A DNA stretch of 64,000 bases from Daphnia pulex (Eukaryota; Arthropoda; Branchiopoda; Diplostraca; Daphniidae): positions 5,385,001-5,449,000 of the forward strand of contig NC_060026.1 in the NCBI RefSeq assembly GCF_021134715.1, written 5' to 3'. The translations under genes were made by a program, and so were the position numbers. The notes below the pieces were generated by a model, which was not told where the DNA came from, ran no database searches, and was given only the letters and a program-made list of their open reading frames with translations. Each line of letters opens with the position of its first letter. Positions within the stretch are counted from its first letter, which is position 1. Below, in pieces: positions 505 through 29,459 of this stretch.

Positions 505-576
505 TCTACGTGGGATCGCACTCCTAACCTCAGGAATCCCAGCCGACGCCGCTACCGTCTGCGCTACTACGGCTTG
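505..576 (-). repeat. tRNA-like module in LINE ORF2, copy 1
   Basis: On the minus strand this has an A-box-like TAGCGCAGACGG and a B-box-like TGCGATCCC. It reads in frame as VAQ, then (S/A)IP 17 codons later. Flanks AAATCAA and TTAATCAA may be a degenerate target-site duplication. It interrupts the segment between the GLGTW and RTWP motifs of ORF2. Stems pair poorly, so it is not a functional tRNA. Confidence 0.6.
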
Positions 577-1499: not shown

Positions 1500-1573
1500 C
1501 ACTCTCCGGGATCGAACCTAGTACTCCTCGATTCAACGCTTGAGCGTTTAACGACTGAGCTACCACTGATACA
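1500..1573 (-). repeat. tRNA-like module in LINE ORF2, copy 2
   Basis: A-box TAGCTCAGTCGTTAA and a perfect B-box GGTTCGATCCC on the minus strand, with a short anticodon-like hairpin (AACGC...GCGTT) between them. It sits just upstream of the RT domain (before FTVDEINIALKA). It is read in the same frame as copies 1 and 3, with the same 51-nt spacing from the VAQ codons to the IP codons. Confidence 0.65.
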
Positions 1574-8390: not shown

Positions 8391-9417
8391 CTACACGCCG
8401 ACTCTCCCGGGCCGATCTCCAACAGCTGACTCCAGGTTGCTCAACGCCGACATGCAAGTCTGTTCATGGACTGTCATACTGCCGTCTAAGTTCGTCAGAC
8501 GCTCCAACGTATTTCCCCGGCGGCCTCTCCTGTCTTCTGCTTCAGCCCGTAGGATATCCTCCAAGGCCAGTAAACGAATGCATAGTCCAGTCATCTCTGC
8601 AATGCTCCCACCGCCACGGCGCCATAGAATCCATATTGTCACGCCACACGCAGCAAACGCCACCAGCAGTCCTCCCCACAGCTCGTATGGATATTGCCGC
8701 AGGCCCTGCGCTCCGTCTCGCCTTTCCTTGTCTCCTTCTTCAAGATCCCTGGCAGTCTTACCAAAATCATTAGTACTAGTTTAGCCGCTGGCTATGCGTT
8801 TCAAGGACGTCTCCAATGACGTCTGGAGCGATAAGTTGACCAAACGCCCGTCCGCGTCCGTGTTTAGGTCACCCGAGTCCTGCGCCACTGCCCAGTTCAC
8901 CCCTCGCAGCCGAGGCATAAAGATGCTGGCGTTCCGAGTAGACACTGTAGAAAATTTTTGGCTGGATTGTAAAATCCATTCGTCTGTCTGGATCGAACAT
9001 CCTCGAGGAATTTCCACAATGCCGACTGAAGGCAGTTCCACTTTCGAATGATCCCGCATGTCCACTTGCTGAGGGCAGGCCATCACGAGTGATTGTGGTT
9101 TGCTCGTAGACACCGCCCACTGGCGTTGTCCCAAGTAAATGGCCTCCGAGCCTCTCCATTCAACTACAATTTGGTCACACTCATTTCTTTTTCTTTTCAG
9201 AATCTTGTAAGAATAGCGCCATTGCGCAGGTCTTCTTAAAGTTCTTGCGGTAGATGGTTTTACTAGGTGGACAAACAGAGCCCGAACGACCTTGACAGAC
9301 CCGGACGTCGGACTCCGTTAACTCCATAAAAGTCTGACGGTTCATTCCAACGGCCAGAAATCCGGGTATTGGCGCGTAGCGTAACCCAATATTCCCGGCC
9401 GTGCTGAATACAGGCAA
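8391..9417 (-). pseudogene. Env-like glycoprotein, C-terminal part (frameshifts and stop)
   Basis: Continues the env ORF that starts at 10700. Segment 9181-9417 (frame shifted by one) has a cysteine-bearing ectodomain piece. From about 9170 the original frame resumes after an A-rich run, suggesting small indels at both borders. A TAA at 8781-8783 breaks that frame, but it then continues to 8391 with a membrane segment (YELWGGLLVAFAACGVTIWI) followed by arginines and a cytoplasmic tail of about 80 residues. This is the expected env C-terminus: ectodomain, one transmembrane helix, tail. Not functional as it stands. Confidence 0.65.
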
Positions 9418-10700
9418 ACAAAAATTTCATACAACTCTAAAGATTGTGTAACTTCAATAATAGGCAGGTGGATAAATAGTCGCAGTCCGTTTTTTGTTGC
9501 GGCCGAAACGACTTGCGCCTCCCGATATGCCCTCCACAGATCACCGGTCTGCAGGGCTGGCGTAAGGTCCCAACCGGTCGTCAGTCTCGACCGAATGTCC
9601 TTGAGCACTATCCGCAGCTGACTAGGTGGAAATAATTCAGGCGGTAGCTTACCAGTTGCCAGTAGTGCTAGACCAATGCTGACATCCTCCAACGTCATCC
9701 TCACCCAGTCCATAGTCTGTTGGGCAGTCCAAAATGCGTCGTCTATTCTCGCCGCCAAGAGCATCTGTCGTTCCAGGGAGGACACAGTTTCAACGATGTT
9801 CACCTTCCACCTGTTGAATTCTTTCTCCAGGGACATGTGGGCTTTGTTCGATTGTTGCATGACAAGGACGTGTTCACCTAGCTCCTGCCAGGTCTCGTTT
9901 ACGAGAGTTGCTTGTTGCGCCACGGCGTGGATGATTCCTGTCGTCTCTCGTACCAGGGCTTGTAGCTGTCCGTTCAGTCCTTCCAAATCGCGTCCGGTGG
10001 CCACTCCAAATAGCCACTGTAGCACTGTTCCTCCAGCATCAACCAGGCCTCGTTTGCTCTGTTTATCCGGTCCAACCAGTGCCTCTCGTAGCGTCCGATA
10101 GCGTCCGCTAACGATTTCCAGAAGTTCCAGTCCTTCCATCGCTCGGTCTTTCACCCTGGTGCGTAGATGCTCGCTGTTTGCCTCCGTTACACTCTTGTCC
10201 TCCTTCGCCATTACTGTAAACCAGTGTCGCAGTTCGGTGATCGCGGTTTCGATGGACCCGAGAGAGACATCGGTCACCACCACCCACTCTGAGTCACTGA
10301 AAAAAATTTCCCCTTGGAACTTAAACACAACTCCATCCTTCACGAACGACCCGAGTTGCATTCCCTGGCTCGGCTGTACCCCCATGAGGGATCCGAGTAG
10401 GCCCAGCAACAGAAGAAGAGCCCCAACTGTTGATGCTTTACCCGAGGGTCCGACCCGGTCCGGGGCCCCTCGCGTCCGTGTAGATCCCAGCAGTGTGGCC
10501 CCCTCCATCTCTAGGTGACTACTTGCTCCAACCTCCTCCTGTTGTACTTGGTCAGCTGAGGTCTCCACTGCACGTTCATCAGGTCGCCCAGTCTCCACTT
10601 GTGTAGCCGCTCCGACGTGCTCGCTACTCTTTTCATGGGCCTTGGGCACAGTCGATCCCGTCGCTCCTGTCATCTCGTTCTTCGATACATTTTCGGTCAC
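9342..10700 (-). pseudogene. Env-like fusion glycoprotein, N-terminal part
   Basis: A 452-codon ORF whose ATG lies 3 bp after the stop of the gag-PR-INc ORF. A hydrophobic signal-like segment (VGALLLLLGLLGSLMGV) lies about 90 residues in, so either the true start is internal or translation follows splicing. Near the middle a basic KQSKR motif is followed by GLVDAGGTVLQWLFG, which resembles the furin-type site and fusion peptide of insect errantivirus and baculovirus F-type envelope proteins. Long amphipathic segments follow. The frame is lost at about 9342 and the remainder lies in other frames downstream. Family assignment rests on layout and the cleavage/fusion-peptide motif, not on overall similarity. 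Confidence 0.65.
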
Positions 10701-10703
10701 CGT

Positions 10704-12131
10704 TCATTCTCCCTTCTTTACAAATCTCTTGATCCTTACGACGTGTGTAAGCTCCATCTGCTTACTCCTTGGCTTCTTCATTTCGGGGTTGAGCGCCGAT
10801 GCGCGACGAATCACGACATAGGGCCTTAACCAGCGATGTAGCCGTTTTTCTGACTGCCCAACCTTTCGAAAAGGTCTGTGCCCGAGTACCTCTTCTCCAG
10901 GGTTGAATCCCACGGCCGCCATGTGCTTCGCGTAGAGCTCCTTTTGTCGTTCTTGTACCTGCTCCAAACTCGTTCTTACCTCCTCTCTTGCCGTCTCTAC
11001 ATTTTGTGCCCCTGTAAGTGGCCCATTAGATCCGATTGAAGTTCTTGCCCCTATTGGCCTTTCGCCGATGAATATTTCTGGCAGTGCGCCAATCTTCAGT
11101 CTAGTTCCTAGTTTTTCCAATAGATCCTTCCCTAACAGCAGGTCTATATCTCCGTCCAGCACAAGTGCCTCTCCCTCCACTCTGATCTCTCCGTTCGAAA
11201 TCACCAATTGGGCCGCTCCTCCCGGACAGATTTCCTTCCCTTCCACTGAAACTAAGTCATTCGCACGCCACGGTCTCACTGTTAGCTTAAGTTCTTCCAC
11301 TAGCTTTGGGGAACACACGGATACCTCTGCCCCCGTGTCGATCACGGACGGGATACGCCTTCCTCCACACAAGACATCTTGGACCACCAATCGTTTAAAG
11401 TCAATTTTCAGTACCGGCCATACCTTCTCCTCGGTGTTCCTGTCCTCCATCCCGATCAGACCAATCAGTTGCTGACCAACACCACTCTGTCGCTGCTGGG
11501 GCGGGGGTCCGGGTTCTTGCCCTCCAGGGCAGAACCGCTGTATGTGCCCGGCTCCGCCGCAGCCATAGCACACGAACTGTCCATCCGGGGTCCGTCCGAA
11601 GTCCATCTGCTGCTGCCGATTGGACCTCGGGCAATCCCTTATGATGTGACCTTCCGTATCGCACTTGCCGCACACCGGCCTCCCGTCCGGAGTCCATCTC
11701 AGATTGACGGGTCGTCTACCTTGTTTCAGCCAGGGCGGTCCTTGTTGGGCGTCGCCGGTCTTCCACCCCTGCTGAGGTGGGTTTTCCGGTGTGTTTGCTG
11801 CTACCGCCCCAAGCATACATTCCATCCTCCGCTCCAGTCGGTCCATCCGCTCGTCCTTTGCCGGTGGTATTGTTTCTCCCAGCACACCTAGAGCCCACTC
11901 CTCACTCCGCGAAGTGAGCTCCTCGAGCCTTTTTACTTCCTCCAGGAATCCGTCGCAGGTTGTAGGTTTAAGGCTCCAGTGTTTCTCGATGACACTCGGC
12001 TTTAGTCCTCTCCAGGGGCATTTCAGCTTTTCGGCCTCCGCCATCCGTGGATTCACTCTCCGACAGAGGTCCAGTACATCGTAGTAGTACTCCCTTGTTG
12101 TTTCTTCTGCTCCCTGCTTCCGAGCCCTCAA
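10704..12131 (-). pseudogene. Gag-protease fused in frame to integrase C-terminus
   Basis: The open frame has no ATG at its upstream end; 12131 is a TTG and the frame extends upstream to a TGA near 12.22 kb, so the gag N-terminus is missing. Residues 1-140 are capsid-like (EYYYDVLDLCRRVNPRM). Two CCHC knuckles follow at about 154-167 and 188-201, each preceded by a T-P-D-G repeat, suggesting local duplication. The aspartic protease motif VIDTGAEVSVCS lies at about 263-274. Residues 380-475 match the integrase C-terminal region of gypsy elements (LYAKHMAAVGFNPGEEVLG, then W-L-R-P-Y). RT, RNase H and the DDE core are gone; the joint is near residues 365-380 and keeps the frame. Confidence 0.75.
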
Positions 12132-12400: not shown

Positions 12401-12937
12401 TGTTGACACATTATGCGTGACATGAATAAGCTCCTCCCCAAAAGCTTGTTCTTTTACTATATATGGATTTTACAGACGAATTATTTTACTGTAATGCGCA
12501 GCCCAGCGCCGACCAAGAGTGCATACCGTTTAATATGTATCGTCTGTAACCCCGCCCCCTTCTCGCTGTCCCCTTTTTGACAGCCACGATCATGTTGTCC
12601 CCTTTTGACAGCCGATCATGTTGTCCCCGCATAAATGACTTCTTCCAATACAGGATCGTTTTGTCCCGCGATTGGAACTACGTTAATTATCGATACCCAC
12701 AACCCCTCCCAAATAGCCGCGCGGGAATCCGTATATAAACTCCCGTCGCAGCCCCTAGAGTTAGACTAGTCACCTCACTGCTAATGCAACAGTTGTAAGT
12801 TAAACTCTCCCTCTGTCTCTCTTTCTCTCAGTTTGTATTCTGTGCAAGTGTTAAACAATAAACTTAGTTCGGCCTAATAATCCGAGTTATTCTTCGAAGT
12901 AAGCGCGCCTTTTCAAGCCCGTGAAAAGCGCCTTACA
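12401..12937 (+). repeat. 5' LTR of plus-strand Ty3/gypsy element
   Basis: Starts TGTTGACACA and ends TTACA just before a TGG-type primer binding site, so it has TG...CA ends. It holds a TATA box (TATATAAA, 12732), a plausible start near 12762, a polyadenylation signal AATAAA (12857) and about 75 bp of U5. U3 carries short tandem repeats of TGTCCCCTTTT(T)GACAGCC (12567-12640). The left boundary is inferred, because no 3' LTR is present for comparison. Confidence 0.6.
12732..12739 (+). promoter_or_regulatory. TATA box in LTR U3
   Basis: TATATAAA, about 30 bp upstream of GAGTTAGAC, the likely start of the R region. AATAAA follows about 95 bp later, giving a short R. Expected position for an LTR promoter. 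Confidence 0.6.
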
Positions 12938-12939
12938 TT

Positions 12940-12953
12940 TGGTGAACGTGCCA
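12940..12953 (+). other. Primer binding site (PBS)-like sequence
   Basis: TGGTGAACGTGCC a few bases after the LTR end. The leading TGG complements a tRNA CCA end. I do not recognise the tRNA from this short match. Confidence 0.5.
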
Positions 12954-13130
12954 ACTCGAACTACATAAATGTAAGTAATGCACAAAATACCAAAATTTTT
13001 CCGTAAGGCTAAGACACAAGAAGGCGACTCTGTAGTTTCCCCAACTAAACAAATATTGTCCCCGGAAGAATTAGAAAAACTAAAAAATAAAATTAAAACA
13101 GAAATATCAACAGCAGAAATCAGAATCCAA

Positions 13131-14074
13131 TACAGTGGGTACCGAAAGTATCCGTACGGCTGAGAGGATCAGTAGGGAAAACGCGTTTTTCAAAACGCTC
13201 CCAAAAATAGAATTCTCGGTGGAATTCAATAAAATTTTTTTCAAAGGTTAACATTAAGGCGGGGTATCATGTGATTTTTTTTTGGAATTTTTCAACAACG
13301 CGATAGGTGGTTTTTATCGCGTTGCGTAAGTATCCGTACGGCCGAGAGGCCCAGTAGGGAATGGGCTTACTTTGGAGGCCTGTTATTCAGTAACTACGTA
13401 ATATTATAGGGTGGGAAATTTCTTAAAAAAAAGAGCTGCATTAGCTCTATCTGTGGTCATAAGATCACATTTTTTAAGTTTCATTTATAGTAATGAAATC
13501 AAAAATGAAAACACGAATTATAAGTTTTCCGTTTTCTTCCCCTCGATTCCCCATCACCAGTGTTGCCATATCCCAAAATCTCTTTCTTCCCTTGGACGGA
13601 AGAGGGAGAAAGAGAAAGGGTAAATATTTTTTGATATGGCAACACTGGTGATGGGGAATCGAGGGGAAGAAAACGGAAAACTTATAATTCGTGTTTTCAT
13701 TTTTGATTTCATTACTATAAATGAAACTTAAAAAATGTGATCTTATGACCACAGATAGAGCTAATGCAGCTCTTTTTTTTAAGAAATTTCCCACCCTATA
13801 ATATTACGTAGTTACTGAATAACAGGCCTCCAAAGTAAGCCCATTCCCTACTGGGCCTCTCGGCCGTACGGATACTTACGCAACGCGATAAAAACCACCT
13901 ATCGCGTTGTTGAAAAATTCCAAAAAAAAATCACATGATACCCCGCCTTAATGTTAACCTTTGAAAAAAATTTTATTGAATTCCACCGAGAATTCTATTT
14001 TTGGGAGCGTTTTGAAAAACGCGTTTTCCCTACTGATCCTCTCAGCCGTACGGATACTTTCGGTACCCACTGTA
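13131..14074. mobile_element. Foldback element: 940-bp palindrome with 440-bp arms, TA-flanked
   Basis: Arms 13133-13572 and 13633-14072 are inverted copies that match in every stretch I compared, with no length difference; the 60-bp spacer holds a partial CTCTTTCTTCCC / GGGAGAAAGAG complement. Ends are CAGTGGGTACC...GGTACCCACTG next to TA on both sides. Each arm holds two copies of AAGTATCCGTACGGC-GAGAGG-CAGTAGGGA (13146 and 13328), like subterminal transposase sites, and a CAACGCGATA/TATCGCGTTG hairpin. No transposase is encoded. The TA duplication suggests cut-and-paste insertion into gag. Confidence 0.9.
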
Positions 14075-14655
14075 TATACTAAACAAAACCACCCGACCAA
14101 ATGAAAGAGACCCAAAAGAGATAGAAAATCTAGAGAACGACATAAAGAATCTGAGAGCTAAATACGCAGAACTGATAGACCCAACGGTTACCATATATAA
14201 AACAAAGAAACGAGCAGTCGAAGAAACAGACCAAGCAACATCACAAGGCCCTGACAAGCCTAATCAAACTAACGCCGCCACGGCGAAACCACGTACCTTA
14301 CTCGATTCAAACGACGAGACTGAAGAAGGAGCAACAGCCCTAACAACTCGAGTAGAGGAAAGGAAAACAGAGTGCGCAAAGTGTCACACCCCCATCGTAC
14401 TATCGATAACAACTGACAAAGAACAGTGTAGGCAGTGCAACACACACAGAGACACAGGAGACGCGGAAGAACAAAAACCAAAAACAAACCAACCCCTGAA
14501 GGAAGAGCGGCCAAAAGAAAATATAGCAAGAGTCGAAAATAAAGAAGAAGAAGTTCAGCCACAACCCCCCAGGCAAGTGCACCTGCCGCCCATGCAACAT
14601 CAAGCACAACAACAGCAACAGGTAGCCAGATACAGAGCACAAGCCGGAAATATTT

Positions 14656-14657
<2 letters not shown>

Positions 14658-14690
<33 letters not shown>
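14658..14690 (+). repeat. (GAC)11 trinucleotide repeat coding poly-Asp in gag
   Basis: Eleven perfect GAC units in frame, giving eleven aspartates. Likely variable in length between copies. Confidence 0.9.
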
Positions 14691-14692
<2 letters not shown>

Positions 14693-15703
14693 AATGGCCC
14701 TAACAAACGCAGCCGTAAACGCTTGGCAAGCAGCAGTAGAAAGACAAGCTGAAATTCTCGAAACCGGACTAGTATTTATAAATGCGCAAAGCGTAAAGAA
14801 GGAGATACCAACATTCACCGGAGAAATCGAAGGAAAAATGGCGATCGAAGAATGGTTCAAACTAGCCGAACGTATGGCGACGCACGCAGCATGGACGGAC
14901 GAGCAAAAGCTACGTTTTTTCCAAGAAAGAATGAGCAAATCAGCTGCGAACTTCAACGATTCCCTAACAGCAGCCGACAAAGCTACTTATGCATTATGGA
15001 AACAAGCAATACTAGACGGCCTAGCTGACAATACAACGAAAGCAAGAAAGAAAGAACAACTGAAGACCCTCAAACAAGAAGAAAAAGAACGAGTCAGAGA
15101 TTTTAAAACCAGAATAGACGACACCTACAGAATTGCATACGGCGTTACCGCAGCAACAAGTAATCATAATGACGTGGTAGCACTTCGTGATGAAACAAAG
15201 AAAGACGTTTTGCTAACCGGCCTCAAAACACAAATAGCAGACCTCGTCTGGAATAGGCCCGATATACACGATGCAACATACGTAGAAACTGTAGAACTAG
15301 CCGAAGAATGCGAAAAAGTTGTAGAAATCAAGAAAATAGCAAAGAATAAAGATTTGTCTTCTGCCGTTACAGTAATGTCAGAAGAAGCCGAAAAAACCAA
15401 AGAAGAAATAAGCAACCTAAAAGGGCTGATCCAAAAACTGATGACAACACCGATTTCTCAACCAGCCGTTCAACTAGAAGAGAAAACTATAAACGCACTA
15501 AATAGATTGGCAATCTCAAACACAGACGGCAAATGGCCCAGCCAAAACCGTGAAAGAAGAACAGTACGTTTCGCAAGTGAATCACCCAACAGAAGCCGAA
15601 GTCAGACGCCCGAAAATAGACGGAGGTACAACACGCCAACTCCGTACAGAGGAAACCACGAAGGATCAAATTGGGGAGATCAAAAGCAATACGAATCTAG
15701 AAG

Positions 15704-18700
15704 ATGTTACGTATGCGACAAGAAAGGCCACCTGGCAAGACAGTGCTGGAGGGCAAAACAAGGCCCATTCGCACAACAAAATGCACGCCAAAACGGACAA
15801 CAAACATACCGACAAAATCAACCTGGCATGAGAACAAATCAGCCAAGGAACAGAAATTTCAACAATTTCCGAAATGGAACTGGGCGGAACGGCACCAACT
15901 AAAAAAGCTAAGAAGAAAACAGCCAAATAGCCTTAGTTATAGACTTTTTCATGTAGAAATCAGCATAGATAATGTAGTAACCCAAGCTTTAGTAGACACT
16001 GGCGCATCAGTGAGCGCAATTTCAGAATATTTCTTTTCAAGATTAGCCAAGGATATAAAGAAGAATAAAATTGAATCGGAGGACGAAAAACTCCATAGTA
16101 TTTGTGGAAAAAGCATGACCATAGCAGGAATATATGACCTACCGATAAAGCTAGACGCGAATAAGGATGAGATTTATCAACAGTTTTATGTTATACCAAA
16201 TCTAACAGAAACCTGCGTGTTAGGAATGGATTTTATAACACGAAACGCTGTCACGTATGATGGAAAAACAAGAAAGTTAACTTACACAATTAACAACAAA
16301 ACGTTTACAATAGACGATGAAGTAAAAAGATTAACACATTATAAAATAACATTAGCCGGAGTGAAAGTTGCAGTAAAAGAACCGACAGCAGCAACAATTA
16401 ATATAGAAGACCCAAACTTAGAAATCCATAGGGATAAGATAATGAAGCTAATAGATAAATATAAAGATATGACAGAAGAAAATTTATACGAACTGGGAAA
16501 AGCAGAAGGAAGTAAGCATTCAATCCCAACAACAGGACAAATCGTTTACCAAAGACCTAGACGACAAGCAAGAGCTTTACAAGGTATTATTCAAAAAGAA
16601 GTAAAGGAAATGCTTGACTGCGGGATTATAAGCCCGAGTACAAGCCCATACAACACACCGATCCACCTAGCCAAAAAGAAAGGAGGAGGATACCGTTTTT
16701 GTATGGATTTTCGTCATTTAAATTCAACAACAACTAAAGACAAATTCCCTCTTCCAAGAATCGATGAAACAATCGACTACCTTTACGGATCAAAATTTTT
16801 CTCGACACTCGACCTGATCAGCGGGTATTGGCAAATTGAGATAGACGAAAAGGATAGGCCGAAAACCGCTTTCTCGACGGAAGACGGACACTATGAATAT
16901 AATAGAATGCCCTTTGGTCTGACGAATGCCCTTTCTACATTCCAGCGTTTGATGAATCAAATTTTACTACCAGTAATTAAAAAATTCGCACTAGTTTACT
17001 TGGACGACGTTATCATATACTCCACTTCTATAGACCAGCATATAAAACACATAGATATTGTCTTAGATTTACTAAAGAAAGCAGGACTAAAAATTAAATT
17101 GTCAAAATGTACGTTCTTGCAAACGTCAGTTAAATACCTGGGACATATAATCTCAGAAAAAGGAATCTCTCCCGATCCCATGAATATAAAAGCAATCGAA
17201 AATTACCCAACTCCCAAAACAGTTAGCCAATTAAAAAGTTTTCTGGGTCTAGCCGGATATTATAGGAAATTTATTAAAAATTTTGCTGATAGAGCCCATG
17301 CACTAACAATTTTGACAAAGAAAAATAACCCATGGAAATGGAAAGAAGAAGAAGAAGAAGCTTTCCAATTTTTAAAGAAGTGTCTGATCCATCCACCAAT
17401 CCTACGCTATCCGAACTTTTCGCGAGAGTTTCTTATTCATACAGATGCGTCTGGATATGGTGTAGGATCAGTTTTAAGCCAAAAACATATAGAAGATGGC
17501 GAAGAAAAAGAAGTCGTCATCGCTTACGCTTCCCGACATCTAAATGATGTTGAGAAAAACTGGAGTACCATTGAGAAAGAAGCGTACGCAATAGTGCATG
17601 CGGTGAAACAATTTTACCCGTACCTATACGGAAGGAAATTTCAAGTATTAAGTGATCACAAACCATTGAGAGAATTATTAAGGAAGAAAGATACTTCAGC
17701 AAAACTAGCTAGATGGGCTTTATGCCTGCAAGATTATGATATTGATATCGAATATCGATCTGGAAAAACAAACCAAAATGCAGACTGCCTCAGTAGAATT
17801 CCAGAACCAGATAGCAATAAAGAGGCGCAACCTGAGCAAACGCCAGTGATAAATGCGCTGACAACCATAAACTTCGCAGAGGAACAAGAAAAAGATAAAT
17901 ACTGCAGGCGCGCGCGCGAAAAATATAAGAAGATGTTGAAAATAAGAGAAGAATTAATTAATGAATCAGAAACAGAAGATGATAGTATGTCGATTAGGGA
18001 TAATGCAATCGACGACAGCCCCCAAGACAGTGATCAAGGATATCTTACAGATGAAGACAACGTATACAACGATGAAGAAGAAGTAGTTGAGCTAGAAAAT
18101 GGCCTACTAGGTACATCTGCAGGAAGAATCCTGGTCCCGGAATCCTTAAAAGAGAAAATTTTTAAAAGATTCCATGACAGTCCATACGCAGGACACCTGG
18201 GAATAAAGAAGACGACAGCAAGGATTCAACGAAGATTTAAATGGCACAAAATGGGAAAAGATATCAAAGAATATGTTAAAGGATGCGAAATTTGCGCTAA
18301 ACGGAAAGCAGTAGGAGCAAATAAGGCACCACTAAACCCGATTCCTCCCCCAAAAGATGTATGGCAGACAATGGCCATGGACATCATGGGACCGTTAGTA
18401 GAATCAGGAAGAGAAAGAAACCAATATATTCTAGTAATGGGAGAATATCTGACACGGTACATTATCACAGCACCGATGCCAGATCAAACAGCAGAGACAG
18501 TAGCAAGAACGTTTGTAAATAATGTAGTATTAATTCATGGAGTACCAGAAACGGTATTAACCGACCAAGGTACGAATTTCCAATCAGAGCTTATGAATAT
18601 TATGTATAAACAATATGGAATCACTCGACTAAAAACAACCGCTTATAGACCCCAATGCGATGGGATGGTTGAGAGAGTGAACAGAACATTAGCGGATATA

Positions 18701-19378
18701 ATAGCCAGTTACGTATCGAAGGAGCCAACCACATGGTCCGATTTTTTACCATCAGCGACATTTGCATATAACACAGCAGTCCACTCAAGTACAGGATACA
18801 CCCCCTTCTATCTCATGTATGGCAGAGAAGCAACCGAGCCCCAAGATATGATTAAACCAGTCCGAAACCGGAACATGACTGATGTAAATATGATCTTCTC
18901 ACAAATGTGGTACGATGCACTCGATATCACTAAAGAAAAGCTAGAGGAAGCTAAGGAAAAGCAAAAAGCCTACTACGACAGAAATACGAAGAGAATAGAA
19001 TTTAAAATAGGAGACAAAATCCTATTAAAAGAAATGGCCAATACGCCAGGAAAATTCAACATGAGATGGGAAGGCCCCTACACTGTGAAAGAAAGAAAAG
19101 GGAATGTTAACTATAAAATATACGCAGACAACGGGAAAAAGATGATGATAGTACATGCGGATAGGATGAAACATTTTCACAAAAGAAAGTCACCGGAAGA
19201 AACGGCAGAAGAGATAACACAAAACAAATCGATAGCAGAAAAGCCAGAAGAAGTAAAACAAGACGAAAAGAAAAGAAAAACAAGTGAAAATCCCATTAAA
19301 GAGCCTAACCTGTCAGAGGAGCCCAGATACTCTTTAAGAAAAACAATCCGCATGCCAGATCGTTTCAGACCAAACTAA
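15704..19378 (+). CDS. pol: Pol polyprotein: protease, reverse transcriptase, RNase H, integrase
   Basis: An uninterrupted frame of 1224 codons, -1 relative to gag; the first 60-70 residues overlap gag, so the listed start is the frame limit, not a true start. Protease: LVDTGASVSAIS (about 97-108). RT: FCMDFRHLNS, DLISGYWQIEI, MPFGLTNA and the catalytic YLDD (432-435). RNase H: HTDASGYGVG (about 579). Integrase: zinc region H-x3-H-like with CEICAKRK (about 861), then catalytic D (AMDIMGP), D (TDQGTNF) and E (DGMVERVN). A GPY motif comes near the end (WEGPYTV), then a charged tail. All catalytic residues I can see are intact, so this copy looks young. The order fixes it as Ty3/gypsy. Confidence 0.95.
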   Translation: MLRMRQERPPGKTVLEGKTRPIRTTKCTPKRTTNIPTKSTWHENKSAKEQKFQQFPKWNWAERHQLKKLRRKQPNSLSYRLFHVEISIDNVVTQALVDTGASVSAISEYFFSRLAKDIKKNKIESEDEKLHSICGKSMTIAGIYDLPIKLDANKDEIYQQFYVIPNLTETCVLGMDFITRNAVTYDGKTRKLTYTINNKTFTIDDEVKRLTHYKITLAGVKVAVKEPTAATINIEDPNLEIHRDKIMKLIDKYKDMTEENLYELGKAEGSKHSIPTTGQIVYQRPRRQARALQGIIQKEVKEMLDCGIISPSTSPYNTPIHLAKKKGGGYRFCMDFRHLNSTTTKDKFPLPRIDETIDYLYGSKFFSTLDLISGYWQIEIDEKDRPKTAFSTEDGHYEYNRMPFGLTNALSTFQRLMNQILLPVIKKFALVYLDDVIIYSTSIDQHIKHIDIVLDLLKKAGLKIKLSKCTFLQTSVKYLGHIISEKGISPDPMNIKAIENYPTPKTVSQLKSFLGLAGYYRKFIKNFADRAHALTILTKKNNPWKWKEEEEEAFQFLKKCLIHPPILRYPNFSREFLIHTDASGYGVGSVLSQKHIEDGEEKEVVIAYASRHLNDVEKNWSTIEKEAYAIVHAVKQFYPYLYGRKFQVLSDHKPLRELLRKKDTSAKLARWALCLQDYDIDIEYRSGKTNQNADCLSRIPEPDSNKEAQPEQTPVINALTTINFAEEQEKDKYCRRAREKYKKMLKIREELINESETEDDSMSIRDNAIDDSPQDSDQGYLTDEDNVYNDEEEVVELENGLLGTSAGRILVPESLKEKIFKRFHDSPYAGHLGIKKTTARIQRRFKWHKMGKDIKEYVKGCEICAKRKAVGANKAPLNPIPPPKDVWQTMAMDIMGPLVESGRERNQYILVMGEYLTRYIITAPMPDQTAETVARTFVNNVVLIHGVPETVLTDQGTNFQSELMNIMYKQYGITRLKTTAYRPQCDGMVERVNRTLADIIASYVSKEPTTWSDFLPSATFAYNTAVHSSTGYTPFYLMYGREATEPQDMIKPVRNRNMTDVNMIFSQMWYDALDITKEKLEEAKEKQKAYYDRNTKRIEFKIGDKILLKEMANTPGKFNMRWEGPYTVKERKGNVNYKIYADNGKKMMIVHADRMKHFHKRKSPEETAEEITQNKSIAEKPEEVKQDEKKRKTSENPIKEPNLSEEPRYSLRKTIRMPDRFRPN

Positions 19379-19389
19379 TCAAGAAATCA

Positions 19390-19398
19390 TTACAGATG
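19390..19398 (+). promoter_or_regulatory. Splice acceptor-like site at env start codon
   Basis: CATTACAG immediately precedes the env ATG (19396). With the donor-like GTAAGT in the leader (about 12971) this fits a spliced subgenomic env mRNA. Pairing inferred. Confidence 0.5.
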
Positions 19399-21435
19399 GC
19401 AAAATTCATTTCAATCATCATCCTGATCATCATCATCGTCTACATCATCCCATCTTCGTCTTTAAATATCACAGTATGCGACTGCAAGAAACCAAAATTC
19501 ATTGGAATAATGGACACCGAAAAACCTGAATATTGTCGAAATAAGAAGAAAGACGACCCAATCCTAGCAGATTATCAATTCTTCGTAAAAGAAGAGCCAC
19601 ACATGACATGGGAAGGGTACGTCTGTAAAGCATGGCTAAAGAGAAAAACGGTCGACGGATTCTTTTTCGGAGATTTTGATACTGTATTTTCCTCAAAAAT
19701 ACAGCATCTCTCCGAAAATGAGTGTTGGCGAATGAAACAAACTAAACGATGCGGAGAAAATGAAATGATTGGAGACGAAAATCAATTTTCATTCACGTCA
19801 AGCCCAAACGGAGAAGGCGTTTGGATGCAAAAAGTATCTTTCACATCCAATAATTGTATGATACAAAAGATATCATTGAAAAAAGATTGTGCAACTTGCC
19901 CAACTACATCTCCATTCGGAATTTTAAATGAAAAACCTAGAGAAACTTTTGTGTACCATCAGGACTCAGTCATTGTATGGATACAACCAAAAAGAAATCT
20001 AGAAGAAGAATGTAAGATTAAAATAAAAAGAAAAAGCACAGGCACGATCACAAAAATAGACGACAACACTTATAAATTAGTAGATGCCCCAGGACAATTA
20101 GACTACATTTATACGGCGGAAACGCAAAACATCTGCGACTTCACCCTCCACAAACTAAAAAACGTTGATGGTGCATATCTCCAAGTACAAAACAAGAATT
20201 GGTCCCACATTTATAACGTAGAAACAAAATATTGCTTGAACCCTCAAATTAGAACACCATCAAAGTGCAGTAACTTGACCGGAGGAGAATTTAAAATTGT
20301 AGATAACAAATTAAATATAGTACCCAAAGACAAATCAGATAAAAAGATATGCATCGCAATGTCACCATTCTTTCATCACATGGATGAATGTAGTAATTTG
20401 TACTCACTGAAATGGGACCCAGACTCATTAGAAATCACTGGAAACACAAGATGCCTACAAATGAACGATAATTCGAGTGTATTTATGAACATTTGTTCCG
20501 GAGAAAATCACCAGAAATGGATATTCGGAATACCGGAAATAAATATAACAGAAAATGTGGACACAAAAGAATCCCTTCTGCTGCAACACCACCAATACGT
20601 AGAAGACCAATCAGTGACAAATGAGAATATTATCGAAAACGAATTAAAACGCATCTACTGCAGTAACCTACAGATGGCACGTCAAGCGACATCTCTCATA
20701 TCAGAATCAAGTGGATTACTAGCAGCAAGAGCTAATAACCTACCGGTGTGCCATAGATTGAAACCTATGGGTGAAGCGTTTATCGTACAAAAGTGCAGTG
20801 CAATAAATATCACGATAGGAGCAAAACAAACGGCCTGTGGATATGAACCATTTTACGATAATCAAACAATCGGAAAAGACGGATTCTCATTACACCCATT
20901 TTCCGAATGCTTTTGGGAAGATGGAATCGTAAACTTTAATGGAAAAACATTTATGTGGAAGAAAGAATTAAATGACTGGGCATATGTGCACCCAAATATC
21001 CACCAATCAACCCTCCGACTAACAGCAAAGTTCACCGAATTAAACGATAATGAAGCAAATTATCAGCTAAATCATCACGAATTTTACCAGAAACAAGAAT
21101 ACGAAAGAATTAACTCAATTAACGATTTAATCACTCAAATTCAAGTTACAGATGCCAGTCCATCTGTAACGATGAAAGAAGAGGCAGAATCTAAATTCGG
21201 GAAATTTGAGTTATGGCACCGTATCCGAAAAGGACTGATAGCAGTCATTTCGATACTGTTCTTTATTATTCTCTGCATGCTAACAATAATTGTTTTCATA
21301 AAAGTTCGGACCCTAAGATCAAAACAACGTTTCGAACGGTACGCAGAGCAACTGCAGGAAAACAGAAAACTGTTACGTGCCGAAAGCCTGGAGCAGAACC
21401 GAGCAGAGACCAACAACGACGAAAGTCTTGTTTAA
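19396..21435 (+). CDS. env: Env glycoprotein, possibly class III-like, with ricin-B-like repeats
   Basis: 679 aa. An N-terminal hydrophobic signal of about 20 residues (ISIIILIIIIVYIIP), then a cysteine-rich ectodomain opening with C-D-C-K-K-P-K and several N-x-S/T sites. One membrane helix at about 613-637 (LIAVISILFFIILCMLTIIVF) and a charged tail of about 40 residues. The early cysteine pattern (YVCKAW, then ENECWRM and KRCGENEM) recalls glycoproteins of negative-strand viruses such as chuviruses, which arthropod LTR elements are known to have captured; this is a pattern-level guess. Residues about 316-388 contain two C-x7-W repeats (CSNLYSLKW and CSGENHQKW), the second a good QxW motif of ricin-type beta-trefoil lectins. 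No furin site is obvious. The frame is intact. Confidence 0.75.
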   Translation: MAKFISIIILIIIIVYIIPSSSLNITVCDCKKPKFIGIMDTEKPEYCRNKKKDDPILADYQFFVKEEPHMTWEGYVCKAWLKRKTVDGFFFGDFDTVFSSKIQHLSENECWRMKQTKRCGENEMIGDENQFSFTSSPNGEGVWMQKVSFTSNNCMIQKISLKKDCATCPTTSPFGILNEKPRETFVYHQDSVIVWIQPKRNLEEECKIKIKRKSTGTITKIDDNTYKLVDAPGQLDYIYTAETQNICDFTLHKLKNVDGAYLQVQNKNWSHIYNVETKYCLNPQIRTPSKCSNLTGGEFKIVDNKLNIVPKDKSDKKICIAMSPFFHHMDECSNLYSLKWDPDSLEITGNTRCLQMNDNSSVFMNICSGENHQKWIFGIPEINITENVDTKESLLLQHHQYVEDQSVTNENIIENELKRIYCSNLQMARQATSLISESSGLLAARANNLPVCHRLKPMGEAFIVQKCSAINITIGAKQTACGYEPFYDNQTIGKDGFSLHPFSECFWEDGIVNFNGKTFMWKKELNDWAYVHPNIHQSTLRLTAKFTELNDNEANYQLNHHEFYQKQEYERINSINDLITQIQVTDASPSVTMKEEAESKFGKFELWHRIRKGLIAVISILFFIILCMLTIIVFIKVRTLRSKQRFERYAEQLQENRKLLRAESLEQNRAETNNDESLV

Positions 21436-21639
21436 AAAAAAAGAAGATATAGCCAAACGGACACGCAAAAACCAAAATTTTACAGACCCCCAGCGCACCG
21501 GCCTTTCCCCCCCATAACCAAAAATTTTTTAACCTTTAACCCCCCGCGGACCACCAAAAAAAAAGGGGGCTACCACCCAAGCAATTAAGATCTCTATATA
21601 AGAATACGAAGAGTTAACGGAGAATTATCAGTCTCCATC
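21436..21639 (+). promoter_or_regulatory. Env-ankyrin spacer: polypurine-like tract, TATA box, Inr/acceptor
   Basis: Holds an A9G5 tract (21556-21569) that looks like an LTR-element polypurine tract but is not followed by an LTR. Next comes TATATAAG (21595-21602, a perfect TATAWAAR match) and TCAGT (21628-21632), an arthropod initiator 35 bp downstream. The same TTATCAG could serve as a splice acceptor. The ankyrin ATG follows at 21640. Confidence 0.5.
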
Positions 21640-23232
21640 ATGCAAGCAAGCTCGTCACTCGGCAAAAATATGGAAGTGCTCCTCCAAAACAAAGTAAAAA
21701 ACCCAACAGAAGAAATAGACAAACTAGTAGAACAAGTATTATCTAACAAGCAAGCTCCGGTGAGAATCAAAAGAATCAATATGACATATAGTCGAATCGC
21801 AAGTACAGCAAGCTGGTTTGGAACGAGAGGGAAATCTGTCAACCTCCTCGTTCAACGCGTAAAAGTCGAGAAAAACGTCAATATTGTCAACCGTCGAAAC
21901 GAGACACCATTGATAATTGCAAGCCAATTGGGAGCCTACGGCTTCGCAAGTTTAATACTTACCCAAAAGCCGTTAATTAACACACAAGACGAAAAAGGCT
22001 ACACAGCACTCCATTACGCCATCGAAGCAAACGCGCTTAAACTAGTGCAGGAATTATTAAAAAACAATGCAGACGTGAACGCACAGACAAAAGAAGGAAA
22101 CACGCCAATGCATAATGCAGTACAATTAAACAACCTAGAAATTGGAAGGGCAATAAGGAAAAGTCGATATTTCAATCAGACGATATTAAACAATGAAGGA
22201 GACAGTGCACTTATATCAGCAGTCAAACAAAGTAAAATAAAAATGTTGACTGTCCTACTGAAATCACCAGACGACTACAATAAACAAGACAAAGAAGGGA
22301 AAACACCATTGCATTATGCATGCATAAGTGCTAGCCCTTGCATTCTACACAGACTTCAAGACAAAAGCCTAGGATCCATCAAAGATATTTATGGCGACAT
22401 ACCATTGACAATCGCCATAAAATACAACAACGAAAGAGCGGTAGACATGCTGTGGCACAGCGTTCATTTCAATACATCAGCAAAAGATCTTCAACTAAAT
22501 ACGCTACTCCACATGGCCTGCCGCCACGAAAATGTACCACTTCTAGAAATGATTTTCTCGTGCACAAAAGACTTCGACGAAAGAAATATGTATAACGAGA
22601 CACCTCTTCACATCGCAAGCTCTGTCAACAACCTTACGGCAATTAAAATGCTAAAGGAAAAATACGTGGACAGAAACGCCCTCGATGTGAGAGGACAAAC
22701 GCCGCTGATAATAACGGCAAGTTTTAATTACACGGAAGCATCAAAGGAACTGTTCAACGACACAAACACGGCAGTCGAACATATTTTTTTAAATGATGAC
22801 ATCCATTCAACTGAGGTGATCATCGTGAATGGCGAGACTGTCAACATAAAAACGTGTATTCTTCTGGACGCCGCTGACGAAAAGGGAAACACGGCATTGC
22901 ATTATTGTTCCCTTTTTGGAAATAAAGAGCTGGCCAGTTTCCTCATCCACAAAGGCGCAAGAATAACAGTACTAAACTACGAACAAGACTCCCCAGTGAC
23001 CATTCTAGCTAAACTACCATCTGGATACGATTGCCCCATATATACAGAGGTATATGCACCCCAGCAGGAAATGCCGTGGAATGCAGCAGAATTGGACACT
23101 CAACAATTATTCCCAGATGAAGGACAAAGTGACCTAGAAACTGACCTAATGTTTATTGCGCCTGAAAAGATTAGTATTTTGGTTCATAGAGGGCACCAAC
23201 AAAAGCCGACCAGCCCTGCAATTGGCTGTTAA
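21640..23232 (+). CDS. Ankyrin-repeat protein encoded downstream of env
   Basis: 530 aa, single uninterrupted frame. A roughly 80-residue N-terminal region without clear repeats is followed by about nine to ten ankyrin repeats between residues 85 and 450. Diagnostic TPLH/TALH cores include ETPLIIASQLG, YTALHYAIEAN, NTPMHNAVQLN, KTPLHYACIS, NTLLHMACRH, ETPLHIASSVN, QTPLIITASFN and NTALHYCSLFG. A C-terminal tail of about 75 residues has no known domain. No signal or membrane segment, so a cytoplasmic or nuclear protein that binds other proteins is expected. The A-rich codon use matches gag, pol and env, and the ORF has no introns, supporting membership in the element. A host gene fragment captured by recombination is the alternative. 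Viral ankyrin proteins often act as I-kappa-B mimics or ubiquitin-ligase adaptors; no F-box or PRANC motif is visible here. Confidence 0.85.
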   Translation: MQASSSLGKNMEVLLQNKVKNPTEEIDKLVEQVLSNKQAPVRIKRINMTYSRIASTASWFGTRGKSVNLLVQRVKVEKNVNIVNRRNETPLIIASQLGAYGFASLILTQKPLINTQDEKGYTALHYAIEANALKLVQELLKNNADVNAQTKEGNTPMHNAVQLNNLEIGRAIRKSRYFNQTILNNEGDSALISAVKQSKIKMLTVLLKSPDDYNKQDKEGKTPLHYACISASPCILHRLQDKSLGSIKDIYGDIPLTIAIKYNNERAVDMLWHSVHFNTSAKDLQLNTLLHMACRHENVPLLEMIFSCTKDFDERNMYNETPLHIASSVNNLTAIKMLKEKYVDRNALDVRGQTPLIITASFNYTEASKELFNDTNTAVEHIFLNDDIHSTEVIIVNGETVNIKTCILLDAADEKGNTALHYCSLFGNKELASFLIHKGARITVLNYEQDSPVTILAKLPSGYDCPIYTEVYAPQQEMPWNAAELDTQQLFPDEGQSDLETDLMFIAPEKISILVHRGHQQKPTSPAIGC

Positions 23233-25761: not shown

Positions 25762-28700
25762 ATGTCAGTCGCCCATCACAACATCAGCAAAGCGTCTGCC
25801 CCACTCAAGTGTTTTCAGATCAATCTGAGGCACGCTGCGCTGCGCTTAATCTCTCGCAATTGATACTGGATCTTGACATTGATGTGATTTTAATTCAAGA
25901 GCCGTATGCAGCTATGTCCCCCCTGTCTTCTTCGTTTGAGTCTAAATTCGTTCCTCTTGGCTACTCTTCTTTCCAGTCTTCCGAGCATGCTTTCGGCGCC
26001 CTGATTATTGCCAAAAGTTCTCTTAACGTTTCGCTCTGCAATTTTGGTCTATCAAATAATTGTTGTGGCATCAAGCTGTCGAACGATCTTTTCTTTTTTT
26101 CTATTTTCTGCAGACCGTCTCTGGTATCGATTCCTTTACACCTCGAGTCAATTTTTAATTCTATTCCGCCGGCCGTAAAAAACACGCCTTTTTCGGCATT
26201 GATTGCAACGCCAAAAGTCAGGACTGGAACAGCGTTCGCTCTGACCACATCGGCGTTGACCTAGAGCTCTGTTTCCTAAATAACGCTCTCTCTGTTTCAA
26301 ATGTGAATCTTAACCTACTTTCACACAAGACGTCCAACACGTCCTCTGTTGACGTCACTCTGGCTGGGGACTCCGTCTCCCTCAATTGTTGACAATACCC
26401 GGCCTATCCGTCTCTTTCGGACCACCCTTTTATCTCTTTCCGTGTGCCCTTTGGTTGTCGTGTTGCCCCGCCTGCACGCACTGAGGTCCGTCTTCCGTCT
26501 CCTCCCAACTGCAACATGCCTCTTTTTCTCTCAAACCTTGAAGCCTCCCTCGGTACCATGGTCATCCCCAGTACTATACAGACGTTTACTTCTCCTCATG
26601 ATATCGAAGCATTCATTGCAAATTTGACTGACTATCAAGTCGGCTGCTCTGAAAAGTAAACTCCCATTTCATCCCTCCCGAGCCCCTGCTAGGATGCCCT
26701 GGTGGTCCGATAATATGTGGTCTCTGCGTAAAAAGCTGAGAGACGCCTACAAACTTAGTCGTGAGTCTCCCTCTCAAGGGCATAGAGACGCGTACAGTCA
26801 CCTCAAAGCCGAGTATCAAAGGACCCTCAGAGCAGGAAAAAAAGAAAGCTGGAAATCCTTCTGCTCCAATAACCTAAACGGAGATAGTTTTGGAGAGTTA
26901 AAAAAGTTGACGTTATCCACCCCAGTTAACAACCATCCTTCAGAACTACTAATTGATGAGGTTTCCATTACTGACCCAAAAGACATCCTTTCTGCCTTCA
27001 GCTCGCATTTCTTCCCGACTAACCCTCCAGATGAATCATTTCACAAATCCGCTCTGCTCTCCTCAACTACCTTCTGCGAAGCACCTCTCTCCTCTACGGA
27101 ATATTTCGTCCTCCCTTCCGAAGTTAAGCAGGCCTTCGATAGTGTGCGTCTCTCTAAGTCCGCTGGCTCGGATGGAATCTCGTCCATCTGGCTAAACCAT
27201 TCCTTCGATTTAATCAAATCCCATTTAGCGGCCCTCTTCTCGGTTTGCTTCAACCTCGGCTACTTTCCTAAATGCTGGAAAACCGCCTCTATCGTCATTC
27301 TTAAAAAAGACAATAAACCGAACTACCTTCACCCAAACTGTTTCAGACCAATCGGTATAATCAACAGCCTCTCTAAACTGTTTGAGAAAATCATTCTTGC
27401 TAAACTTAAGGCTTTGGCTGATACGCACTCTTGGTTTAGCCCCAGTCAGCATGGTTTCAGGGCAGGTCTATCCACAGAAACGGCCTCCCTCTCTCTTATT
27501 AAGTTAATCGAAGGCAACAAAAAAAAGATGGTCACTTGTTGTGCTTTTTTTAGACATTAAGTCAGCTTTTGACGCGGCCTGGCACCCAGCCATTCTGAAC
27601 AGCCTAATTAAAAAAGGCTGCCCCCAGTTCTTAGTAAAAATTCTGGGTGACTTCCTCAGCTCTCGCTCAAGCATTTTGAAAAACGTTTCGGCCTCCTTCA
27701 CTGCCAACACTAAGCTCGGTTGTCCACAAGGCAGTGTCCTCTCGCCGTTTCTTTGAAACATTCTTATAGAGGAACTGCTAAGCCTTAGTTTCCCTTTTCT
27801 CTTCTTTATTTCGGCGTATGCCGATGACATTGTTCTCTGTGCTATGGACAAAGACTTTGATACTGCTCTTGCCAACCTTCAAGCAATGAGCGATTCCGCT
27901 GTAGCATGGGGTCGTTCGGTCAAACTAACTTTCAACGGCTTAAAATTCGTCTTCATGGTCTTCTCCTCTAAACGAACCCTGCCGTCATTGCCCTTGAAGG
28001 TTGACAACATATGTGTTGCTCGTTCCCACTCATGCCTGTACCTTGGTCTAACCATCGATGACAAACTCAGCTGGAACACCCACATATCTAACAAATGCGC
28101 TGCGGTAAAAAAAAACTTTTGTTCCTCATTCCTAAATGCTGTCGGCTGTCTTGGGGCCTCTCGCGCAATGCAATTTCTCTTCTATATAAAACAACCGTGA
28201 TTCCCACTATACTTTACAACTGCTCTGTTTGGGCTTCGGCCATCCGCAGGAAGCGTGTAATTGCAGCCCTGAAATCCGCCCAACGCCCTTTTGCGCTGAC
28301 CATTGGCCGACTGTTCAAATCCACGTCTACTGACGCGGCCCTCATTCTCGCCAACATCCTCCCTCTGCACCTCAAAATCATCGAAATGGTTCTAAAGAGA
28401 TCCATCTCTACCCTAGCTGCTCTTCTGCCACCCTCGTCGTTACAAGTTGCTGGCGGTATCTCTGCCAAAATTCTGGCGTCTGAAGCTCCAGCAGGCATAC
28501 CCCTTGGTCTGCACAGGAAAAGAGTGATGCGGTCAGAAATGCTTTCCCTTTGGAACGCAGCCTGGCAAAATGCAAACACGGGTGCCCAGACCCGCTTGTT
28601 CTTTCCCTCAGTGGAATCCGCCTTGATTTTGTCCTCTTCTAAATTACCTTTCTTTCTCTGCAGCTTTCTCTCGGGCCACTGCGGTCTAAACAATTTTCTT

Positions 28701-28931
28701 TTTAAAATCAAAAGGTCCCCGTCACCGCTCTGTCCCTGCCTGTCAGGGGAAGTGGAAAACGCAGCGCACATTTTATTTGTCTGTGTAAGCCACGTCGCAC
28801 ACCGAGTACGCCTTATTTCTTCTGCGGCTGAGCTAAAGCTTTCTTGGCCAGTCCCACTAGACGCCTTCTCCCAATCGAAAACTCTATGGTCTGCGTTTGT
28901 CAAATTCCTATGTTCCATCAAAAGACTATAA
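25762..28931 (+). pseudogene. LINE ORF2: endonuclease, RT and C-terminal zinc region, multiple frameshifts
   Basis: Starts at the ATG at 25762. Pieces of one protein lie in different frames: CFQINLRH (to 25840), then LDLDIDVILIQEPY (endonuclease, 25860s), then RT pieces at 26694-27560 (KSAGSDGISSIW, NCFRPIGI, SQHGFR), 27541-27756 (FLDIKSAFDAAWHPAI, GCPQGSVLSPF) and 27780-28200 (AYADDIVLC, within 27808-27840), and the C-terminal part 28095-28931 with C-P-C-x5-E-x3-H-x4-C. A TGA follows SPFL at about 27754. At least five indels or stops, so it is non-functional. Confidence 0.8.
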
Positions 28932-28941
28932 CCGCCATTAC

Positions 28942-29459
28942 CTTTCCCATCTATTTATATTTTATTCTGTTCTCTTAGTTGCGTTTTGGCCGCTCCTTTT
29001 GTTTCGCATGAGTCCCTCGTGCCCTAATTTCTGGCGTATTCGACCCTGATGTCATCCTCTGGCTCTAGCGGGCGCCTTAACCGGACCGTGGCCGTAAGAG
29101 TCGTCCGTTGCTTCGCGGTGCTGGTGACATCCAAATCAGCATCTCGTCGCTCCGGACCATCTGGGGGGTCGACAGCGGCAGTCTTTTTACTCAGTCTTTC
29201 CCATCTATTTATATTTTATTCTGTTCTCTTAGTTGCATTTTGGCCGCTCCTTTTGTTTCGCATGAGTCCCTCGTGCCCTAATTTCTGGCGTATTCGACCC
29301 TGCTGTCATCCTCTGGCTCTAGCGGGCGCCTTAACCGGACCGTGGCCGTAAGAGTCGTCCGTTGCTTCGCGGTGCTGGTGACATCCAAATCAGCATCTTG
29401 TCGCTCCGGACCATCTGGGGGGTCGACAGCGGCAGTCTTTTTAGTCTTTTCCTCAGTCT
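28942..29459 (+). repeat. Two-copy 254-bp tandem repeat in LINE 3' UTR
   Basis: A unit beginning CTTTCCCATCTATTTATATT starts at 28942 and again at 29196, nearly identical. Unit 2 has a slightly longer end. It is GC-richer than the flanks and non-coding. Confidence 0.9.

What the first reader, a model, noticed from the sequence alone, without database searches (positions are those of the whole stretch)
21640..23232. Ankyrin-repeat gene carried by an env-bearing Ty3/gypsy element
Seen: after gag, pol and env, in the same orientation and similar A-rich codon style, lies an intact 530-aa intronless ORF with about nine to ten ankyrin repeats. Known: standard Ty3/gypsy and errantiviruses have no such gene, while large DNA viruses and polydnaviruses use ankyrin proteins against host NF-kB or as ubiquitin-ligase adaptors. 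Inference: this lineage has acquired an accessory gene, perhaps for immune interference, making it more virus-like. This is my top candidate for an undescribed system.
Basis: partly seen in the sequence, partly recalled or inferred. Interest (0 to 1): 0.9.

Follow-up and report, generated by a model that had tools for sequence, protein, structure and literature searches.

The report
Ankyrin gene in crustacean retrovirus-like elements
Retrovirus-like mobile elements in what appears to be the water flea Daphnia pulex carry an extra gene for an ankyrin-repeat protein, kept intact by natural selection, which suggests that these elements have accessory genes for handling host proteins, as complex retroviruses do.

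Summary
Window 21640-23232 is an open 530-codon frame with ankyrin repeats (about 11 helix pairs in the model), directly after gag-pol-env of a Ty3/gypsy element. The window copy is truncated: homology to sister copies stops at 23154, so the last residues are flanking DNA and the 3' LTR is missing. The gene still belongs to the element: a sister copy has identical 426-bp LTRs, a 4-bp duplication and the order gag-pol-env-ank-orfX-LTR; in a second lineage 6 of 6 insertions with paired LTRs have ank between env and the 3' LTR; a third lineage has it too. dN/dS is 0.18, like gag. A TATA-Inr pair at one spacing precedes ank in 7 of 15 intervals scanned, in two lineages: possibly an internal promoter. 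PPxY motifs sit in ank or a neighbouring ORF in some lineages, in none of four gag frames. The env model resembles class III fusion glycoproteins, at low confidence. Accessory-gene acquisition is well supported; immune interference is untested. Best guess: a protein-binding adaptor, perhaps recruiting a NEDD4-type ligase. Ten searches of an open-access library found no description of this in Daphnia; planarian Burro (ankyrin inside a polyprotein) is the nearest precedent.

The parts
12490..12937 (+). 5' LTR of the window element (E1)
   Evidence: 74% match to all 426 positions of the E2 LTR
12938..13129 (+). leader, nearly identical to E2's, with a splice-donor-like GTAAGT at about 12971
   Evidence: alignment; the donor is a consensus match read by eye, not tested
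13130..14075 (.). 946-bp fold-back (450-nt perfect inverted arms) between leader and gag, with TA beside CAGTGGG ends
   Evidence: the LTR-to-gag distance in E2 is about 940 bp shorter
14577..15902 (+). gag (zinc knuckle, E 0.003, below Pfam's cut-off)
   Evidence: 91% aa identity to E2, dN/dS 0.18
15704..19378 (+). pol (protease, RT, RNase H, integrase)
19396..21435 (+). env, 679 aa; hydrophobic stretches at residues 1-30 and 608-642; model resembles class III fusion glycoproteins
   Evidence: 93% aa identity to E2, dN/dS 0.10
21595..21633 (+). TATATAA (21595) and TCAGTC (21628), 35 nt from first T to the A: putative internal promoter for ank
   Evidence: same spacing in E1, E2, E3, relaxed form in A4; chance about 0.001 for this one interval
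21640..23154 (+). ank, element-derived part (505 codons)
   Evidence: dN/dS 0.184 against E2

Best explanation
The ORF is the ankyrin accessory gene (ank) of a family of env-bearing Ty3/gypsy elements; the copy in the window lost its 3' end. SHOWN: ank is carried between env and the 3' LTR through independent insertions, is under purifying selection about as strong as gag, and occurs in three lineages of these elements. INFERRED: in some clades (E1-E2-E3-A4; L046-L047-L058) it is made from a short mRNA started at a TATA-Inr pair between env and ank; other lineages may use splicing. INFERRED: the product is an intracellular repeat scaffold (Pfam found no enzyme, F-box or PRANC domain) that binds one or a few host proteins. 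Together with the PPxY motif that lies in its own tail (E6, E7) or in the next small ORF (E2; L048), it most likely recruits a NEDD4-type ubiquitin ligase, either to remove a host restriction or signalling factor or to help enveloped particles leave the cell. My probabilities: bona fide element gene 0.96; internal promoter in those clades 0.65 (raised from 0.6 after one search found the pair in L047 and L058 too); protein-binding adaptor against host factors 0.5; late-budding helper 0.25.
For: E2: identical 426-bp LTRs, CACT on both sides, purine-rich tract before the 3' LTR, order env-ank-orfX-LTR. Second lineage: 6 of 6 insertions with a 283-bp LTR at each end have ank downstream of env. Third lineage: L046, L047, L049, L050, L058. 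Pfam Ank_2 over its cut-off in E6, E7, L047, L048, L049. dN/dS (E1-E2): ank 0.184, gag 0.181, env 0.102; L046-L047 ank 0.195; neutrality rejected, Fisher p 7e-28 (E1-E2 ank) and 8e-7 (L046-L047). TATA-Inr pair at the same 35-nt spacing in E1, E2, E3, L046, L047, L058 and in relaxed form in A4. PPxY in E2 orfX, E6 ank, E7 ank, L048 second ORF; none in 4 of 4 gag frames or E1 pol. Database relatives, probably metagenomic, at 96, 79, 80, 85, 80 and 89% identity (P0002-P0007).
Against: No RNA or protein evidence was available. The TATA-Inr pair is absent in 8 of 15 intervals scanned (A5, E6, E7, E10, L044, L048, L049, L050), or in 9 if A4's relaxed form is not counted; the pattern was chosen after seeing E1. 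PPxY is absent from E1's ank, the four L044 ORFs and the ank of L046, L048 and L049, so the NEDD4 idea does not cover all lineages. E2's own ank has a 37-nt deletion with a frameshift near residue 451 although its LTRs are identical. Of 20 stretches downstream of env that I chose by env hits alone, 11 have no ank match, so ank is not general to env-bearing elements here. The tree does not join lineage A's ank to B and C.
Confidence: 0.6

Rival explanations
1. Ank (with its PPxY partner ORF) is an assembly or budding factor: the repeats bind Gag or the Env tail and the PPxY brings NEDD4/ESCRT, replacing a late domain that gag lacks.
For: No PPxY or PTAP in 4 of 4 gag frames; PPxY in accessory ORFs of lineage A and L048; PSAP in 9 of 14 env-tail pieces of other lineages, but no PSAP, PTAP or PPxY in E1 or E2 env or in 27 of 27 database env relatives, as if the late motif had moved between proteins.
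Against: Ank without PPxY exists in E1, L044, L046, L048, L049; lineages B and C have both PSAP env tails and ank; short motifs arise by chance, and no expectation was computed for them.
Confidence: 0.25
2. Ank is a regulatory protein of the element (transcription or RNA export), as tas of foamy viruses (recalled).
For: Position after env and a candidate internal promoter resemble foamy viruses in layout (recalled).
Against: Pfam shows only ankyrin repeats over cut-off, no DNA- or RNA-binding domain.
Confidence: 0.12
3. Ank is a host gene that happens to lie beside a truncated element (chance neighbour).
For: The window copy alone cannot exclude it: no 3' LTR, and the ORF end is flank-derived.
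Against: LTR-flanked copies with ank inside: E2 and 6 of 6 in lineage B; the first hit not tied to an element copy has E 3.1e-16, behind 12 rows that are.
Confidence: 0.02

Closest known systems
Errantiviruses of insects (gypsy, ZAM; features recalled) and other env-bearing Ty3/gypsy elements
   Same: LTRs, overlapping gag and pol frames, env downstream, TG..CA ends, 4-bp duplication
   Different: one to several further genes after env; env has no Pfam hit at E 0.01 and its model resembles class III glycoproteins, not baculovirus F
Bdelloid rotifer LTR elements with captured ORF3 (GDSL lipase, DEDDy exonuclease, paramyxovirus-like env)
   Same: LTR elements that take up extra ORFs after pol (PMC5408684; passages seen)
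   Different: 'ankyrin' has 0 occurrences there; in those passages the extra ORF stands where env would be, here it is added to env
Burro giant gypsy-like elements of planarians
   Same: gypsy-like element with ankyrin repeats, env homology and accessory ORFs (PMC6431247; passages seen)
   Different: the ankyrin repeats are one of many motifs in a 4,873-aa polyprotein (with BIR, BCL2, TRAF-C); here a separate gene after env
Foamy viruses (internal promoter, accessory genes after env; recalled)
   Same: accessory genes after env and a candidate internal promoter
   Different: gene content unrelated; the promoter here is only a sequence prediction
Poxvirus, giant-virus and polydnavirus ankyrin proteins
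   Same: ankyrin fold; Foldseek lists mimivirus-like and poxvirus ankyrins
   Different: 14-22% identity in the 50 rows shown, no F-box or PRANC hit; by sequence the repeats resemble generic ankyrins and DARPins

Membership tests
Ty3/gypsy LTR retrotransposon (Metaviridae) | PR-RT-RH-IN pol after gag | tested here: met
Ty3/gypsy LTR retrotransposon (Metaviridae) | two LTRs with TG..CA ends, target duplication and purine tract | tested here: met
   E2: all of these; lineage B: paired LTRs, TG..CA and purine tract, duplication not checked; in the window only the 5' LTR remains
Errantivirus | env gene downstream of pol | tested here: met
   679-aa ORF with hydrophobic stretches at both ends and glycoprotein-like model
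Errantivirus | baculovirus F-type env | tested here: inconclusive
   no Pfam hit; the top 50 rows of the PDB search are herpesvirus gB, but the model is weak (pLDDT 70.6, pTM 0.37, TM about 0.2)
Errantivirus | RT phylogeny inside the errantivirus clade | not tested
   RT pieces could not be fetched
Poxvirus-type ANK-PRANC proteins | C-terminal PRANC/F-box | tested here: not met
   no such family for six ank proteins
Vankyrin / I-kappa-B mimic | binds Rel/NF-kappa-B and blocks it | not testable with these tools
   needs a binding assay
NEDD4 adaptor (PPxY protein) | PPxY motif | tested here: inconclusive
   present in E6 and E7 ank and in E2 and L048 neighbouring ORFs, absent in others

The most novel reading that the evidence does not exclude
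A crustacean group of complex endogenous retroviruses in which a captured ankyrin gene, in some clades with its own internal promoter, and a companion PPxY ORF form an accessory module that redirects host NEDD4-type ubiquitination against antiviral or anti-transposon factors. This would be an arthropod counterpart of lentiviral and foamy-virus accessory genes, kept over deep divergence (RT 55-62% and env about 30-45% identity between lineages).
Probability: 0.25. Interest if true: 0.87.

Novelty: new variant of a known kind. Interest (0 to 1): 0.7.

Why it matters
Accessory genes are a hallmark of complex vertebrate retroviruses; env-bearing gypsy elements of arthropods are usually described with gag, pol and env alone (recalled). 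Here an ankyrin gene is shown inside LTR-flanked copies, some with identical LTRs, and under selection, so what it targets can be sought directly (pull-down, RNA mapping) in a model animal. It would also test whether invertebrate endogenous retroviruses evolved counter-defences of their own.

Tried and rejected
Ank inside U3 (like MMTV sag, recalled): I first took the A9G5 run at about 21558-21572 for a polypurine tract. Rejected: in E2 the purine tract and the 3' LTR lie about 0.9 kb after ank, and the run is shorter or altered in E2, E3 and A4.

Host gene beside an element: rejected by LTR-flanked copies.

Single origin of ank across lineages: not resolved. A, B and C are each one clade (100/99, 100/100, 100/99), B+C only 81/49, and A is not joined to them (24 rows, 307 of 585 columns kept; the 12 background rows were database ankyrins that I picked, so host paralogues of this genome are not in the tree).

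LTRs of E6 and E7, and of the lineage C copy on C4: not found in the flanks that I held. Lineage C is therefore tied to the elements by position after env only.

Viral contigs: no relatives of two ank proteins. PADLOC: two ankyrin-type models, not specific.

Literature, 10 searches of the open PMC library: no listed title or abstract start describes ankyrin genes after env in Daphnia gypsy elements. Rho et al. 2010 on D. pulex LTR elements (PMC2996953, passages seen) has 0 occurrences of 'ankyrin' and of 'envelope'. Two insect ERV papers have 0 hits for ankyrin (term counts only). Most subscription papers, Repbase and supplementary files were not searched.

Full report
WHAT WAS CHECKED. The window lies at C10:5385001-5449000 of a 133.2-Mb, 13-contig genome. 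Database matches named Daphnia pulex (DAPPUDRAFT_120542, 96% over 61% of a lineage C ank; DAPPUDRAFT_117510, 39% over 45% of env) and a COX1 with in-frame TGA on C13, hence mitochondrial, make D. pulex or a close relative the likely host; that its assembly has this size and 12 chromosomes is recalled.

THE WINDOW COPY (E1). A 5' LTR lies at 12490-12937, then a leader nearly identical to that of E2, a 946-bp fold-back that E2 lacks by distance, gag, pol, env and ank. Homology to E2 and E3 stops at 23154 in the last codons of ank. The E2 post-ank region and LTR match nothing in the window but the 5' LTR. E1 is therefore a truncated provirus and its ORF ends in flanking DNA. Database proteins at 96% and 79% identity end where E3's frame does.

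IS ANK A GENE OF THE ELEMENT? E2 on C3 (minus strand) has LTRs at 4049077-4048652 and 4038467-4038042, identical over 426 bases, with TGTAATG...TTACA ends, CACT on both sides and a purine-rich tract before the 3' LTR; between them lie gag, env, ank (4040891-4039405) and a further ORF (orfX, 188 codons from its first ATG) that is also open in E3. E2's ank has a 37-nt deletion that shifts the frame near residue 451. In lineage B the query LTR (283 bp) is found at both ends of 6 insertions, three on C8 and one each on C5, C2 and C9, each with env and then ank before the 3' LTR: 6 of 6. Other places have the LTR unpaired. The pair on C8:766529-780680 is 100% identical over 283 bp; the other percentages are against that LTR, not within pairs. 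Four of the six have an ank that aligns over at least 396 residues without a stop; two are broken. One search lists further lineage B ank copies whose LTRs I did not test. Lineage C has ank after env in L046, L047, L049, L050 (frame broken) and L058 (broken). In the first search the top 12 rows, 9 loci, all lie in element copies.

HOW WIDESPREAD. By tblastn with eight element anks, 20 of the 36 loci L025-L060 have an ank match and 16 have none. L025-L038 were chosen round known ank copies or as their 5' flanks. The fairer set is the 20 stretches chosen only by env hits and lying downstream of env (L039-L055, L057-L059): 9 have an ank match (L044-L050, L057, L058; in L057 the arrangement is mixed) and 11 have none (L039-L043, L051-L055, L059). 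L041-L043 follow broken lineage A env pieces. So ank is a feature of lineages A, B and C, not of all env-bearing elements. RT identity to E1 is 61-62% (E6, E7), 57-58% (B), 55-58% (C) and 54-55% (the L039/L040 group, no ank); an RT tree was not possible.

SELECTION. Nei-Gojobori dN/dS between E1 and E2: ank 0.184 (446 codons), env 0.102, gag 0.181; L046-L047 ank 0.195. The other 6 of the 10 pairs were saturated at synonymous sites and gave no ratio. Neutrality is rejected for ank (Fisher on rounded counts, p 7e-28; 8e-7 for L046-L047).

EXPRESSION. The interval from env stop to ank ATG in E1, E2 and E3 has TATATAA and TCAGTC at the same 35-nt spacing (first T to the A), 10 nt before the ATG; A4 has TATATAA with TCAGAC. 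That segment is identical in 35 of 51 columns over four copies, against 93 of 184 in the rest. A same-composition Markov sequence has such a pair in 0.1% of 20,000 trials; this is for one interval and a pattern chosen after seeing it. L046, L047 and L058 have TATAAAG and TCAGTT at the same spacing. A5, E6, E7, E10, L044, L048, L049 and L050 have none, and the LTRs of E1, E2 and lineage B have TATATAAA but no pair. Within each clade the copies are kin, so the counts are not independent. TCAGTY as arthropod initiator is recalled.

PRODUCT AND NEIGHBOURS. The model of the 530-aa ORF (mean pLDDT 75, 13 sequences) is an ankyrin solenoid with disordered ends. PDB and viral searches give generic ankyrins. 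PPxY occurs in E2 orfX, E6 ank, E7 ank and L048's second ORF (two); not in E1 gag, env or ank, the L044 ORFs, the ank of L046, L048 and L049, or the L039 ORF. Gag frames of E1, E2, E6 and E7 lack PPxY and PTAP; E1 has one YP-type match near the start of its stop-to-stop frame, upstream of the listed gag start. PSAP is present in 9 of 14 env-tail pieces of other lineages; L051 has PTAP far from its end; L048, L052, L053 and L058 have neither; E1, E2, L014 and L016 have neither, the last two pieces perhaps lacking their ends. The env model (mean pLDDT 70.6, pTM 0.37) hits herpesvirus gB in the PDB (E about 6e-11) and rhabdo-, chu- and xinmo-like glycoproteins among viral models (E down to 2e-16), but with TM-scores of about 0.15-0.3 and large rmsd, so a class III fold is likely, not firm.

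ORIGIN. Each lineage's ank is one clade; a common origin of A with B and C is neither shown nor excluded. No close host gene was found: the first hit not tied to an element has E 3.1e-16 at 30% identity.

CONCLUSION. The accessory gene is real and selected. What it does is inferred: an intracellular adaptor, best guess with ubiquitin-ligase recruitment. Precedents exist for extra ORFs in LTR elements and for ankyrin repeats inside a gypsy-like polyprotein, so this is a new variant of a known kind.

Noticed in passing
window 13130-14075: 946-bp fold-back with 450-nt perfect arms and internal 37-nt repeats, with TA beside its ends, inserted in the provirus leader: a Tc1/mariner-like MITE or other fold-back element.
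   Followed up: partly
L026 (complement) 1964-2572; L027 (complement) 2086-2697: Second accessory ORF (188 codons, PPSY, proline-rich) between ank and the 3' LTR in E2 and E3; weak similarity (E 4e-4 to 0.04, with filters off) to post-env ORFs of other lineages. Its DNA also follows ank in A4 and A5.
   Followed up: partly
L044 (complement) 2302-2895, 3071-3487, 3388-3744: Lineage B has up to three more small ORFs after ank, in a 14-kb element.
   Followed up: no
env tails of L044, L045, L046, L047, L049, L050, L054, L057, L059: PSAP motif in the env tail of several gypsy lineages, ank-bearing or not.
   Followed up: partly
G000 C8:671135-781299: A 30-bp piece next to a lineage B element recurs, often at 1,156-bp steps: probably a satellite array into which the element inserted.
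   Followed up: no
window 9345-12131 (-): GC-rich pair of long ORFs; 10707-12131 has zinc knuckle and aspartyl protease domains, the other no Pfam hit: probably another LTR element's gag-protease.
   Followed up: no
window 460-2889 (-); 26694-28931 (+); tandem 251-bp repeat 28942-29446: Non-LTR retrotransposon pieces (endonuclease and RT; weak RVT and zf-RVT) and a two-copy repeat; the second lies downstream of the truncated element.
   Followed up: no
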